Assembly: GCA_012800805.1 (NCBI GenBank)
Contig: JAAZIO010000146.1
Span: 1 to 7,705 of the forward strand
Direction: 5' to 3'
Length of the DNA: 7,705 bases
DNA from: Clostridiales bacterium
GTDB taxonomy: Bacteria; Bacillota; Clostridia; Christensenellales; CAG-917
Position numbers and translations under genes: made by a program
Part shown: positions 1 to 7,217 of the stretch, piece by piece
How the letters are laid out: each line of letters begins with the position of its first letter
Position numbering within the stretch: position 1 is the stretch's first letter
The notes under the pieces: model-generated
Seen by the model: only the letters and a program-made list of their open reading frames with translations
What the model was told of the DNA's origin: nothing
Database searches by the model: none

Positions 1-6
1 AAAAGA

Positions 7-2965: not shown

Positions 2966-3012
2966 AATAATAAAGTTTTCCAAAAAAATGTAAAAGAAAT
3001 TATATAAAAAAC

Positions 3013-3041
3013 TTGAAAAAACTTTATAAGGGGTATAAAAT
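3013..3041 (+). promoter_or_regulatory. sigma-A promoter of the RHH-clpB operon
   Basis: TTGAAA (3013-3018), a 17-bp spacer and TAAAAT (3036-3041) match the consensus at five of six positions in each hexamer. The predicted start near 3048 is only a few bases before the Shine-Dalgarno sequence at 3051, so the leader would be very short. A perfect dyad TTTATA (3023-3028)-AGGGG-TATAAA (3034-3039) overlaps the -10 and is a candidate operator. No CIRCE (TTAGCACTC/GAGTGCTAA) or CtsR heptad repeat (GGTCAAA) was seen between 2830 and 3058. Confidence 0.6.
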
Positions 3042-3050
3042 AATCTTGCC

Positions 3051-3055
3051 GGAGG
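3051..3055 (+). promoter_or_regulatory. strong Shine-Dalgarno sequence with no canonical start codon behind it
   Basis: GGAGG is a near-ideal ribosome binding site. Six bases downstream, at the ideal spacing, is AAG (3062-3064). ATT (3059-3061) is three bases away and in the RHH frame. The first NTG codon in frame, TTG at 3083, is 27 bases away. An in-frame TAA at 3041-3043 excludes any start further upstream. The site thus marks translation starting at about 3059-3062 rather than at the TTG. Confidence 0.8.
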
Positions 3056-3058
3056 ATT

Positions 3059-3706
3059 ATTAAGAACAAAATCTTATACAGTTTGATATTAAGCGAGAGC
3101 GTAATTGAGGCGATAGATAGAGAAGCTGACAAAAAAGGGACCACAAGGTCGGGTCTTATTGACGAGATACTTTCCGAGCATGTTTCGGTTGTCACTCACG
3201 AGCAACAAATAAGAAAAATATTCCGTGAGCTTGACAGGCTGGTCGCAGGACATTTTGAGGAGCTCAGCCCGACAAACAGCCGTTCAATCGCTCTAAGAAG
3301 CTCGCTTGATGTCAAATACAAGCCTTCCGTCAGATATCAGTTTGAGCTTTCAAAAAACTTCGACACCACGCTTGGCAGGCTTAAAGTCCAGTGGAGGAGC
3401 AAAGCGCCCGAACTTCTTAGCAGAATCGAGGAGTTTGTAAGATACTGGACCGAGGCTGAAAAGCTGTTCTCGGGAGATGATTTCGCGGGGGCGGAATTCT
3501 TCCTTGAAGAGGGAAGATTCCAAAGGCTTTTTCTGACTCCAAAGGACTTTGAGCTTAAGCATAACATTATTGGAAGAGCGCTCTACGACTATATGCGCGC
3601 GTTTGACACGGCTCTTAAAAACTACGCCTCCGGAGAGAGCGACGGCTATAAGGATGTTGAAAAAAGCTTTGCAAGCTATGTAAAAAACACTGTAAAGAAA
3701 CTGTAA
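3059..3706 (+). CDS. ribbon-helix-helix protein with unrecognised C-terminal domain, coupled to clpB
   Basis: The N-terminus reads as a CopG/Arc-type ribbon-helix-helix domain: beta-strand ILYSLILSES, helix A VIEAIDREADKKG, then TTRSGLIDEILSEHV as helix B. RHH proteins bind DNA as dimers through that beta-strand. Conceptual start choices are ATT at 3059 (215 codons) or TTG at 3083 (207 codons); the TTG would cut through the strand and has no Shine-Dalgarno sequence, so 3059 is given although ATT is non-canonical. The remaining roughly 165 residues match no domain I recognise. They look soluble, with helices, a likely beta segment near LDVKYKPSVRYQFEL, then more helices rich in charged and aromatic residues; no membrane segment is seen. 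The stop overlaps the clpB ATG (TAATG). Operon position suggests an autorepressor of clpB or a ClpB partner. The DNA-binding fold is fairly secure; the role is inference. Confidence 0.75.
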   Translation: MKNKILYSLILSESVIEAIDREADKKGTTRSGLIDEILSEHVSVVTHEQQIRKIFRELDRLVAGHFEELSPTNSRSIALRSSLDVKYKPSVRYQFELSKNFDTTLGRLKVQWRSKAPELLSRIEEFVRYWTEAEKLFSGDDFAGAEFFLEEGRFQRLFLTPKDFELKHNIIGRALYDYMRAFDTALKNYASGESDGYKDVEKSFASYVKNTVKKL

Positions 3707-6303
3707 TGGACGCATCGAAATTCACAAAAAAGACGCTTGAGGCGACCATAAACGCTCAAAACCTTGCAAGGGAGAACGCCAACCAGCAGATTGCCCCTGA
3801 ACACCTTGCTTTTGTTTTGATAAGCGATAGAGAGGGGCTGATAAGGTCTCTCCTTGAAAAAACGGGCGCGGATACCGAGGCTTTGGAAAAAGAGCTGCTT
3901 AATCTTATAAAGAAGCTGCCCAAAGTCATGGTTAGCGGAGGGGTTAGGGATAATCTCTACCTTGACAGGCAAACAGAGCGTATATACAGCCTTGCAGAGG
4001 AGAAGGCAAAAGAGCAAAAAGACCTGTATATCGGCGTCGAGCATCTTTTTTCAGCTCTGCTCGACTTAGCCGAGGGCGCGCTCTCGGGCGCGCTTAAAAA
4101 AGCCGGAGTTTCAAAAAAGGCTTTTTTAGAGGAGGTGAATAAAGTGAGAAACGGACCGATTACCACCGACAATCCCGAGGACACCTACGAGGCGCTTGAG
4201 AAGTTCGGAACGGATATAACAAAAAGAGCAAAAGAAAACAAGCTTGACCCCGTCATAGGAAGAGACGACGAGATAAGAAATGTCATAAGAATACTTTCAA
4301 GAAAAACCAAAAACAACCCCGTTTTGATAGGCGAGCCGGGGGTTGGCAAAACCGCGATAGCCGAGGGGCTTGCCCAAAGAATTGTAAGAGGGGACGTTCC
4401 CGAGGGTCTTAAGGATAAAAGGCTCATCGCACTTGACATGGGCGCTCTTATTGCGGGCGCAAAATACCGCGGAGAGTTTGAAGAAAGGCTTAAAGCCGTT
4501 TTGAACGAGGTCAAAAAGCAGGAGGGCAAAGTCCTGCTCTTTATAGACGAGCTTCATACGATAGTGGGCGCGGGAAAAGCCGACGGCGCTATGGACGCCG
4601 GCAACCTGCTAAAACCCATGCTTGCAAGGGGCGAGCTTCACTGCATTGGAGCGACAACGCTTGACGAATACAGAAAGTATATTGAAAAAGACGCGGCGCT
4701 TGAAAGGCGCTTCCAGCCCGTAATGGTAAACGAGCCTACGGTAGAAGACACAATCGCAATCTTAAGAGGTCTTAAAGAGCGCTATGAAATCTACCACGGG
4801 GTAAGGATACACGACGCAGCGCTTGTGGCCGCGGCCACGCTGTCTCACCGCTATATTACCGACAGGTTTTTGCCCGATAAGGCAATCGACCTTGTGGACG
4901 AGGCATGCGCTTTGATTAGAACCGAAATTGACAGCATGCCCGTTGAAATGGATGTCATTTCAAGAAAAATTATGCAGCTTGAGATTGAGGAAATGGCTCT
5001 GTCAAAAGAAACGGATAAGCTCTCAATGGACAGGCTTTCAGCTCTTAGGGCGGAACTTAAAGAAAAGAGGGAAGAGTTTGAAAAGCTCAAAAGACAGTGG
5101 GAAGCCGAAAAAGCGGGCATTAACGACGTTCAATCCATCAAAAAAGAAATCGACAGAGTAAATTCCGAAATAGAGAGGGCCACAAGAGAATTTGACTACG
5201 CTAAAGCTTCAGAGCTTCAATACGGCGCTCTGCCCACACTTATGAAAAAGCTTGAAGAGGCGGAAAAGGGCGGCGGAACGGAAAAGAAAAAAAGACTGCT
5301 TCGCGACCAGGTTACCGCGGACGAGATATCCTCAATTGTTGCGAAATGGACGGGAATTCCCGTAACCAAGCTGATGGAGAGCGAAAAGCAAAAGCTACTT
5401 TCCCTTGAGGCGGAGCTTCATAAGCGGGTGATAGGTCAAGATGAGGCGGTGCGGAAAGTATCAGAGGCGATAAGGAGATCGCGCGCGGGTATTGCCGACG
5501 CCAACAGGCCCATAGGCTCATTTATGTTCCTTGGGCCCACGGGTGTGGGTAAGACGGAGCTTGCAAAGGCGCTTTCTTCGATACTCTTTGACGACGAAAA
5601 GAATATGGTAAGGATTGATTTGTCGGAGTATATGGAAAAGTTCTCTGTGTCAAGGCTTATCGGCGCTCCTCCCGGTTATGTAGGTTACGACGAGGGAGGA
5701 CAGCTGACGGAGGCGGTAAGAAGAAAGCCCTACTGCGTTGTGCTGTTTGACGAAATAGAAAAAGCCCACCCCGATGTGTTCAACATTCTTCTTCAGGTGC
5801 TTGACGACGGCAGGCTTACAGACAGCCAAGGCCGAACGGTGGATTTTAAAAACACCGTCATAATCATGACATCAAACCTTGGAAGCTCGTATATACTAGA
5901 GGGAATCGGCGCTGACGGCGAGCTGAAAGCGGGAGTAGCGTCTTGCGTTGACGCTTTGCTAAAGCAAACATTCAGACCCGAGTTTTTAAACAGGCTGGAT
6001 GAAATCGTTATGTTTACGCCGCTCAGCAAAGGGCAGGTTAAAAATATCGTTGAGCTGATGCTGAGCAACCTTAAAAAGCGTCTTGAGGATAAGGAGCTTA
6101 AGCTTATTGTAAGCGATAGGGCTAAAGAAAAAATCATCGAAGGCGGTTTTGATGTCAACTTCGGAGCAAGACCCCTTAAGCGCTTTATCCAAGCCAATAT
6201 CGAAAACAGGGTGGCAACGCTTCTTCTTGAGGGCAACCTCTTACAGGGCGACACGATATATATAGATGTGAACGAAAAAGGTTTTATTGTTGAAGCAAAA
6301 TAA
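3706..6303 (+). CDS. clpB: ClpB disaggregase (Hsp100 AAA+ ATPase)
   Basis: The 865-residue cytosolic hexameric unfoldase works with DnaK/DnaJ/GrpE to rescue aggregated proteins. Domains in order are a two-repeat N domain (about 1-145); AAA1 with Walker A GEPGVGKT (209-216), pore-loop Tyr254, Walker B LLFIDE (277-282), sensor GATT (315-318) and arginine fingers Arg334/335; a full-length coiled-coil M domain (about 416-535), which favours ClpB over ClpC; and AAA2 with Walker A GPTGVGKT (610-617), pore loop GYVGY (657-661), Walker B VLFDE (679-683), arginine finger Arg763 and sensor-2 GARP (820-823). No ClpP-binding IGF/IGL-type loop was recognised. Every key residue is intact. The ATG overlaps the upstream stop and has no Shine-Dalgarno sequence of its own, so translation is probably coupled to the RHH gene. 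An internal start at codon 147 is annotated separately. Confidence 0.97.
4130..4146 (+). promoter_or_regulatory. internal ribosome binding site and GTG start within clpB
   Basis: AGGAGGTGA (4130-4138) is a perfect 9-nt complement to the 16S anti-Shine-Dalgarno sequence. Eight bases after its GGAGG core comes GTG (4144-4146), in the clpB frame as codon 147. Translation here would give a 719-residue ClpB lacking the N domain, beginning in the linker before AAA1. E. coli and cyanobacterial ClpB are known to make such a short form from an internal start at nearly the same point (Val149 in E. coli). Use in this organism is inferred, not shown. Confidence 0.6.
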
Positions 6304-6330
6304 AGCCATTAAAACGGCATGGTTTTTTTT
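6303..6330 (+). terminator. probable intrinsic terminator of the RHH-clpB operon
   Basis: A 7-bp stem, AAGCCAT (6303-6309) with ATGGTTT (6319-6325) including one G-U pair, encloses a 9-nt loop and runs into a tract of eight T (6323-6330). The stem starts at the last base of the clpB stop codon. The U-tract is excellent but the stem is modest, so read-through into the spacer is possible. Confidence 0.6.
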
Positions 6331-6642
6331 AGCGATAAAGCTCAAAAAGCAATTTTTATTAAATAGAATTTAATCATGCAATCAATTGTCTTAACTAAAA
6401 ACAAGTAAAATTTTAATGCCCTATAAAACAATCAAAAAGTTAAAACACTGATTTCAACGAGCCGATAGCTTAAATTTAACGGGCTGAACCTTTAATATAT
6501 TGAAGTAATTTATTAACTTTAAATCAAAAGTCTAAATAATCAATAGTCTAATAAATTTTTATAAATTAAACTTAAGCATTTAAGCTGCTTTGCTTTTAAT
6601 AAGTAAAAAAGACTTAAATGTAAAAAACTGTATTTTTTGATT

Positions 6643-6729
6643 ATGCATACACAAGGGCAAAAGACGCAAACTAATATCAGAAAGCGGCAAGAAAAGGAGT
6701 TTCTTAGCTCTATCCCGCTTAAGACTTAA
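6643..6729 (+). CDS. candidate 28-codon micro-ORF or gene remnant
   Basis: ATG at 6643 opens 28 codons ending at TAA 6727-6729, one base into the stem of a strong terminator. The peptide is very polar and basic (TQTNIRKRQEKEF within it) and ends SSIPLKT; it has no signal or membrane segment. There is no Shine-Dalgarno sequence before the ATG. In favour are the less AT-rich composition than the flanks and the stop sitting directly against the terminator, as at the end of a real gene. It may be a small gene, the relic C-terminus of a lost gene, or part of a small RNA: 6682-6687 and 6715-6720 (AAGCGG/CCGCTT) enclose a second hairpin, 6689-6705. I do not recognise it. Confidence 0.2.
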   Translation: MHTQGQKTQTNIRKRQEKEFLSSIPLKT

Positions 6730-6759
6730 CACCCGCAAATAGAGATGCGGGTGTTTTTT
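6728..6759 (+). terminator. strong orphan intrinsic terminator
   Basis: AACACCCGCA (6728-6737) and TGCGGGTGTT (6746-6755) form a 10-bp perfect stem with an 8-nt loop (AATAGAGA). It runs into T6 (6754-6759), whose first two bases also close the stem. It is the strongest terminator in the window, yet the nearest recognised gene upstream, clpB, ends over 400 bp earlier with its own terminator. It implies an undescribed short transcript, or the surviving end of a lost gene. Confidence 0.85.
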
Positions 6760-7191
6760 CTATTTAAACCGCTCTAAGATTTTTTTTATAAACTTTTATA
6801 GCTTTATTGACCTAGGTTTTAATTGCATTATAAATAAAAAGCGGTTTTAAAATTTTAAAAGACAAAAAAGCACTAAAAAGCTAATTTATTGTTTTTTTTG
6901 AAAATTTACATTTAATGTTTCGCTTATTTTTGGGAATTTGTTTGATTTTTTATTTCTTTACTTTCAAGTGAAAAATGATAATCTTTTGCTTTATAAGATT
7001 GAAATAGTTTGATATGGAAGAAAAGTTTTTAAATTTAGTTTTTAAATACTCTAGATTTAAGAAGAACAATTTTTAATATACTGAACCATTTTTTTAAGGA
7101 AAATAGTAAGACGGTTTTATATTATAATAAAACGCTTAAAACAAAACGCCAAACAAAAGAGCGGCAAAACTAATTACGCTTTTTTTTAAAC

Positions 7192-7217
7192 AAAAAGACG
7201 CATCTAAGATGCGTCTT
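7192..7217 (-). terminator. intrinsic terminator of tRNA-Leu
   Basis: AAGACGCATC (7195-7204) and GATGCGTCTT (7208-7217) form a 10-bp stem with a 3-nt loop. On the minus strand it runs into TTTTTG and then another T run (7180-7190). The first stem base coincides with the last A of the tRNA's encoded CCA, so no spacer separates the tRNA from its terminator. Confidence 0.85.

What the first reader, a model, noticed from the sequence alone, without database searches (positions are those of the whole stretch)
3051..3085. RHH gene has an ideal ribosome binding site but no canonical start codon
Seen: GGAGG (3051-3055), then ATT (3059), AAG (3062) at the ideal spacing, and no NTG in frame until TTG at 3083; an in-frame TAA at 3041 blocks anything further upstream. 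The codons from 3062 to 3091 encode the beta-strand (ILYSLILS) that RHH proteins need to bind DNA, aligning with CopG-type N-termini (RLTITLSES). Starting at TTG would remove it. Either AUU is used as start, as known for infC, which would tie expression to IF3 level, or an ATG has become AAG (loss of function or sequencing error). A one-base change to ATG at 3062 would restore a perfect start.
Basis: partly seen in the sequence, partly recalled or inferred. Interest (0 to 1): 0.75.

Follow-up and report, generated by a model that had tools for sequence, protein, structure and literature searches.

The report
Start-less regulator of the ClpB operon
In this genome fragment, from what is likely an uncultured clostridial bacterium, the gene next to the ClpB chaperone gene reads AAG exactly where 97 of 99 relatives and a near-identical database protein have a normal start signal, so it likely makes very little of a protein that is predicted to control ClpB through a DNA site noticed here.

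Summary
In detail: GGAGG 3051-3055, ATT 3056 and 3059, AAG 3062, no in-frame NTG until TTG 3083, TAA at 3041. Relatives show that codon 3062 is the family's start position: 97 of 99 distinct relatives have ATG/GTG/TTG exactly there, and a 99%-identical protein (P0001) has Met there. TTG is not conserved at 3083 (10 of 98). AAG is therefore most likely a strain-level start-codon substitution, or a consensus error, rather than a conserved infC-like AUU start, although infC of this same genome also lacks NTG and reads ATT. AUU 3059 may give trace initiation but lies only 3 nt from GGAGG.

The gene itself is more interesting than the lesion: a clpB-linked protein with a predicted ribbon-helix-helix N-terminus, whose promoter carries a conserved palindrome, AAATTTG-N9-TTATATAA-N9-CAAATTT, overlapping the -35 box. 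In five genomes the exact core plus -35 occurs once, at this promoter. I propose a dedicated clpB autorepressor. In the window clpB lacks a ribosome site and overlaps the stop (TAATG), so the lesion would also lower ClpB. Two relatives carry ATA and ACG; gene calls hint that a non-NTG start is conserved around the ACG one.

The parts
3062..3706 (+). ORF of the clpB-linked RHH-type protein (214 codons read from AAG 3062, stop TAA 3704-3706)
   Evidence: one copy in the own genome
3062..3064 (+). AAG at the family's start position
   Evidence: NTG in 97 of 99 distinct relatives; Met in P0001
3059..3061 (+). ATT, possible trace start, 3 nt after GGAGG
   Evidence: sequence; spacing 3 in 4 of 115 genes with an SD
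3056..3058 (+). second in-frame ATT, 0 nt after GGAGG
   Evidence: sequence
3083..3085 (+). first in-frame NTG (TTG); a leucine codon of the conserved YSL motif, not a conserved start
   Evidence: TTG in 10 of 98 relatives at this position
3051..3055 (+). Shine-Dalgarno GGAGG
3000..3007 (.). palindrome TTATATAA, predicted operator core
   Evidence: exact core + N5 + TTGACA once per genome in 5 of 5 genomes
2984..2990 (.). left operator arm, AAAAATG (consensus AAATTTG, 2 mismatches)
3017..3023 (.). right operator arm, AAAAACT (consensus CAAATTT, 3 mismatches)
3013..3018 (+). -35 box TTGAAA (TTGACA in most relatives)
3036..3041 (+). -10-like hexamer TAAAAT, 17 nt from the -35
   Evidence: consensus scan
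3706..6303 (+). clpB; its ATG overlaps the stop of the RHH gene (TAATG) and has only a 3-nt SD match
   Evidence: TIGR03346 1326 bits over cut-off 1232

Best explanation
The codon at 3062, the start position of this clpB-linked gene in 97 of 99 relatives, reads AAG in this assembly, which likely cuts full-length translation of a protein that is predicted to be the autorepressor of the RHH-clpB operon. How it would work: an RHH-type dimer binds the palindrome AAATTTG-N9-TTATATAA-N9-CAAATTT, whose right arm overlaps the -35 box, and represses its own operon, hence clpB (inferred from anatomy). In the sampled strain the start codon has been substituted (inferred to be a recent, strain-level change, because P0001, 99% identical, has Met there). 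AAG mispairs with the initiator tRNA at the second base, so little initiation is expected; some may occur at AUU 3059, which is poorly spaced. Because clpB here has no ribosome site of its own and overlaps the stop codon (TAATG), less translation of the first gene would also mean less ClpB translation, while loss of the repressor would raise transcription (both inferred). Shown: the codons, the alignment, the synteny, the conserved promoter motif, the overlap. Not shown: any expression, binding or regulation.
For: Start position: ATG 92, GTG 4, TTG 1, ATA 1, ACG 1 among 99 distinct relatives; P0001 identical at 210 of 213 residues, Met at this codon. Upstream residues conserved, TTG 3083 not. 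In the own genome, among 166 tested genes only infC and this one have a full-length conserved ORF without NTG. IF3 requires Watson-Crick pairs at the first two codon bases (PMC10158994, passages). Linkage: clpB on the same strand in 16 of 16 loci and 78 of 80 (the other two end 80 and 282 nt after the gene); the two sets overlap. Operator: 0 mismatches to TTATATAA-N5-TTGACA in 68 of 96 upstream regions, at most 1 in 83; spacing 5 in 84 of 88; 0 of 1920 mononucleotide shuffles reach 0 mismatches and 2 reach 1. Dyad centred on TTATATAA: mirrored arms differ at 1.9 of 7 positions at offsets 15-16 against 2.3-4.3 at the other offsets tried. Once per genome in 5 of 5 genomes, each at this promoter by its coordinates. 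clpB SD: 3 nt in the window, at least 4 nt in 93 of 94 relatives.
Against: The contig is from a fragmentary MAG (208 contigs, 73% complete), so a consensus error cannot be excluded. The rest of the ORF is intact over 214 codons, with 187 of 187 residues after position 27 identical to P0001, so there is no other sign of decay. TAATG coupling would make the loss costly for ClpB, which favours an error or a working weak start. Two relatives (ATA, ACG) also lack NTG, and gene calls suggest that the ACG lineage has lived with it, so a non-NTG start may be tolerable. P0001's codon is known only from its protein sequence; its DNA was not reached. At 1 mismatch the promoter motif also occurs elsewhere: 2 further places in the sampled 389 kb of the own genome plus the same palindrome read on the other strand, and one other promoter in the sampled 1.2 Mb of G004.
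Confidence: 0.58

Rival explanations
1. Consensus or assembly error: the living strain has a normal start codon and AAG is wrong.
For: P0001 has Met there; fragmentary MAG; everything downstream of the codon is intact; loss would also hit the coupled clpB.
Against: None of the other 164 tested genes of this genome shows a lost start with an intact ORF (infC aside); the codon is at 3062 of a 7705-nt contig, not at its edge; P0001 differs at three more residues (23, 24, 27), so it is another strain and may differ truly.
Confidence: 0.24
2. Working non-AUG start: AUU 3059 (or AAG itself) is used at low, IF3-limited rate, as in infC, and sets the level of the regulator and, by TAATG coupling, of ClpB.
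For: infC of this genome has ATT ATT AAA GAG after AGGAGG, and no NTG at that place in 5 of 7 genomes looked at; stress regulators with such starts are known: sigR GTC under IF3 (PMC5472188, passages), rsbW ATA/ATT in Listeria (PMC13068326, abstract and one section); ORF intact; coupling.
Against: 97 of 99 relatives and P0001 start with NTG at 3062; ATT 3059 is 3 nt from GGAGG, a spacing found in 4 of 115 genes; AAG mispairs at the second base.
Confidence: 0.15
3. TTG 3083 is the real start and the protein is 207 aa without the strand.
For: It is the first NTG in frame and what a gene caller would take.
Against: No Shine-Dalgarno in front of it (sequence); TTG at this place in 10 of 98 relatives; the residues before it are conserved.
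Confidence: 0.03

Closest known systems
CopG / NikR / MetJ-type ribbon-helix-helix autorepressors
   Different: A further 170-residue domain of unknown role; partner gene is clpB; no Pfam RHH family reaches its cut-off for the window protein.
CtsR and HrcA/CIRCE control of clp and chaperone genes in Firmicutes
   Same: Predicted repressor acting on a clp chaperone gene.
   Different: Other fold (recalled), other site: best CIRCE-like site has 7 of 18 mismatches in 98 upstream regions, best CtsR-like site 2 of 14 in one region, mostly 5-6 (both consensus sequences recalled).
infC AUU and sigR GTC starts repressed by IF3
   Same: Non-NTG codon behind a good Shine-Dalgarno; infC of this genome is an example.
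   Different: In infC and sigR the odd start is the norm of the family; here the family norm is ATG.
Listeria rsbW start-codon mutants (ATG to ATA or ATT)
   Same: Single-base start-codon change in a negative regulator of a stress response, lowering its translation (PMC13068326, abstract and section 10).
   Different: There selected in the laboratory and tested; here seen in one assembly, AAG, untested.

Membership tests
Ribbon-helix-helix (MetJ/Arc) superfamily | N-terminal strand followed by two helices | tested here: inconclusive
Ribbon-helix-helix (MetJ/Arc) superfamily | Match to a curated RHH family | tested here: inconclusive
   RHH_1 found at E <= 1 in 17 of 18 aligned members, best 4.9e-4; window protein RHH_5 E 0.022, RHH_1 E 0.17, both under the gathering score.
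Ribbon-helix-helix (MetJ/Arc) superfamily | Dimer that binds a palindromic operator | not testable with these tools
   A conserved palindrome exists at the promoter; binding not tested.
infC-like IF3-controlled start | Non-NTG start conserved in relatives | tested here: not met
   97 of 99 distinct relatives have NTG at the codon; a further 20 of 20 in the genus of G640 too.
infC-like IF3-controlled start | Translation rises when IF3 is limiting | not testable with these tools
   Needs reporters.
CtsR | PF05848 match | tested here: not met
   No PF05848 among the matches of any of the 18 aligned proteins listed at E <= 1.
Type III secretion chaperone / YbjN-like fold (residues 43-190) | Fold match well above background | tested here: inconclusive

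The most novel reading that the evidence does not exclude
A dedicated, previously unnoticed clpB regulator (RHH domain plus a chaperone-like sensor domain, tripartite operator at a single promoter per genome) whose start codon works as an evolutionary rheostat: lineages repeatedly swap ATG for GTG, TTG and even non-NTG codons (AAG here, ATA in L192, ACG in L244 and perhaps its whole clade) and live with low-rate initiation that tunes ClpB.
Probability: 0.22. Interest if true: 0.8.

Novelty: new variant of a known kind. Interest (0 to 1): 0.52.

Why it matters
If right, many clostridia control the ClpB disaggregase with a local repressor and a site unlike CIRCE or the CtsR box, which would fill a gap in stress control of uncultured gut and rumen bacteria (49 of 248 sampled genomes of the window's order hold the gene). 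The start-codon change is a natural test case of how far a regulator's start may drift, and a warning that gene callers drop the DNA-binding strand when the start is not NTG.

Tried and rejected
TTG 3083 as start: rejected (no SD, not conserved). A start upstream of TAA 3041: blocked by the stop; the predicted -10 box ends at 3041, so the transcript would begin behind it (inference). RNA structure hiding the ribosome site: 3047-3130 folds no better than shuffles (z 0.48, 131 of 200 shuffles as good). CIRCE or CtsR box upstream: not found. Defence system: no PADLOC family at E <= 0.1. Is the RHH gene a stand-in for CtsR? Left open: CtsR was found in 1 of 17 genomes with the gene, but also in only 2 of 11 without it, and the search rang in just 1 of 14 control genomes (Lactococcus lactis; not Bacillus subtilis, which I recall has ctsR), so its sensitivity is doubtful. 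The gene is not needed for clpB: 8 of those 11 genomes without it hold a ClpB over the cut-off. Pattern search for starts whose second base is not T behind the MKKS[IVM]YS motif: 2 of 125 genomes of the genus of G640, one being L244's own gene and one elsewhere in the genome; the pattern sees only that exact motif. Three of the 78 projected clpB starts lie before the RHH stop (-230 to -332), which I take for misprojection and did not inspect. Excess of non-NTG starts in this gene over clpB (2 of 99 against 0 of 94) is too small to be significant, and the clpB start was searched within 6 codons, the RHH start at one codon only. First scan of genome contigs found no relative. No search result (listings and abstracts only) described an RHH regulator of clpB; most subscription papers are not held.

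Full report
Observation. The sequence is as described, with a second in-frame ATT at 3056 and the remark that ATT 3059 stands only 3 nt behind GGAGG, while AAG 3062 stands 6 nt behind it. In this genome spacing 6 is common (27 of 115 genes with an SD) and spacing 3 rare (4 of 115).

Where the start belongs. A search of 60 relatives gave 16 genomes besides the own one with a homologue. In all 16 the codon aligned with 3062 is ATG (14), GTG (1) or TTG (1). A scan of named genomes kept 80 loci (the best 80 of 463 confirmed), and a search of 248 genomes of the order found the gene in 49 and gave 30 loci. After removal of identical copies 99 relatives remain: ATG 92, GTG 4, TTG 1, ATA 1 (L192), ACG 1 (L244). 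Twenty more, the best-scoring part of the 53 matching genomes in the genus of G640, have ATG 10, GTG 8, TTG 2 (overlap with the 99 not checked). clpB in the same loci starts with ATG in 94 of 94. The leucine codon at the 3083 position is TTG in only 10 of 98. Among 5.8 billion proteins one hit was found: P0001, 214 aa, 8 member sequences, identical at 210 of 213 residues, with Met at the codon in question; its three differences are clustered at residues 23, 24 and 27.

Is the genome full of such cases? Of 166 tested genes only infC and this gene have an intact conserved ORF without NTG at the start (rows dropped are told in the observation check). infC shows ATT ATT AAA GAG after AGGAGG; in seven genomes the codon before the conserved lysine is ATT 2, ATC 2, TTC 1 (with ATT before it), TTG 2. 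So a non-NTG start is at work in this lineage, but in its classical place.

Other non-NTG cases in the family. L192 (Ruminococcus sp. UBA6407) has ATA; 11 of 11 close proteins (P0002-P0012, 94-100% identical) have Met at that place, three of them as an internal residue, so ATA is a strain- or assembly-level change, like AAG here. L244 has ACG with a perfect promoter motif. Its closest proteins behave differently: P0057 (100% by rounding, 18 members) carries Thr there and is called from a GTG inside the ribosome site; P0105 and P0106 (94%), P0122 (84%) are called from an internal MDDV and P0064 (87%) from MYSL, whereas the next five fetched relatives (75-79%) start MKKSVYSL. That pattern suggests a conserved non-NTG start in a small clade, but rests on gene calls, not on DNA.

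Promoter. The upstream regions share TTATATAA exactly five bases before TTGACA: 0 mismatches in 68 of 96, at most 1 in 83 (95 relatives and the window). Aligned on it, 84 regions show arms AAATTTG and CAAATTT placed symmetrically about the palindrome. The right arm overlaps the end of the -35 box, which points to repression (inference). The exact motif occurs once in each of five genomes, at this promoter by its coordinates; with one mismatch it also occurs at a few other places. The window keeps the core (3000-3007) but has TTGAAA as -35 and 5 of 14 mismatches in the arms, among the five worst of 84. L192 has a damaged core but good arms.

Coupling. In the window clpB begins inside the stop codon (TAATG) and has a 3-nt SD match; 93 of 94 relatives have at least 4 nt (88 at least 5). 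Thus the first gene's translation probably feeds clpB (inference).

Mechanism and literature. AAG would mispair at the second base; IF3 was found to require Watson-Crick pairs at the first two bases (PMC10158994, passages). In Listeria, rsbW start codons changed to ATA or ATT lower translation in the order ATG > ATA > ATT and raise SigB activity (PMC13068326, abstract and section 10). sigR of Streptomyces has a GTC start repressed by IF3 (PMC5472188, passages), and the GTG start of lacI in a gut E. coli raises basal lac expression (PMC11445065, passages). The 64-codon measurements in E. coli are not held. I therefore take a start-codon substitution with residual or no initiation as most likely, then a consensus error, then a working AUU start.

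Verdict. The lesion is of a known kind; the clpB-linked regulator with its operator is, as far as five searches of the held library show, not described there (listings only).

Noticed in passing
window 2984-3023 and 95 relatives: Tripartite palindrome AAATTTG-N9-TTATATAA-N9-CAAATTT at the RHH-clpB promoter, core 5 nt before the -35 box.
   Followed up: yes
window 2989-3007, - strand: The same TTATATAA also lies 5 nt from a -35-like TTTACA facing the divergent GPH-type transporter gene (1261-2829, -), so one site might serve two promoters in this genome.
   Followed up: partly
window 3704-3708: clpB start overlaps the RHH stop (TAATG) without a Shine-Dalgarno, unlike 93 of 94 relatives.
   Followed up: yes
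L244 184-190 region; P0057, P0064, P0105, P0106, P0122: ACG at the start position with a perfect operator; gene calls of close proteins suggest a conserved non-NTG start in that clade.
   Followed up: partly
L192 3995-3997: ATA at the start position while 11 of 11 close proteins have Met there.
   Followed up: yes
L277-L296: GTG or TTG starts in 10 of 20 homologues of the genus of G640, against ATG in 92 of 99 in the wider set.
   Followed up: partly
L148 (G000 contig C71), - strand: infC of this genome lacks NTG: AGGAGG-GAAAAA-ATT-ATT-AAA-GAG.
   Followed up: yes
window 3128-3142: The three residue differences between the window protein and P0001 fall within five residues (23, 24, 27 of 214), near the RHH turn; recombination or local selection possible.
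   Followed up: no
window 6304-7216: About 0.9 kb of AT-rich sequence between clpB and tRNA-Leu with no ORF of 60 aa or more apart from one that runs over the tRNA.
   Followed up: no
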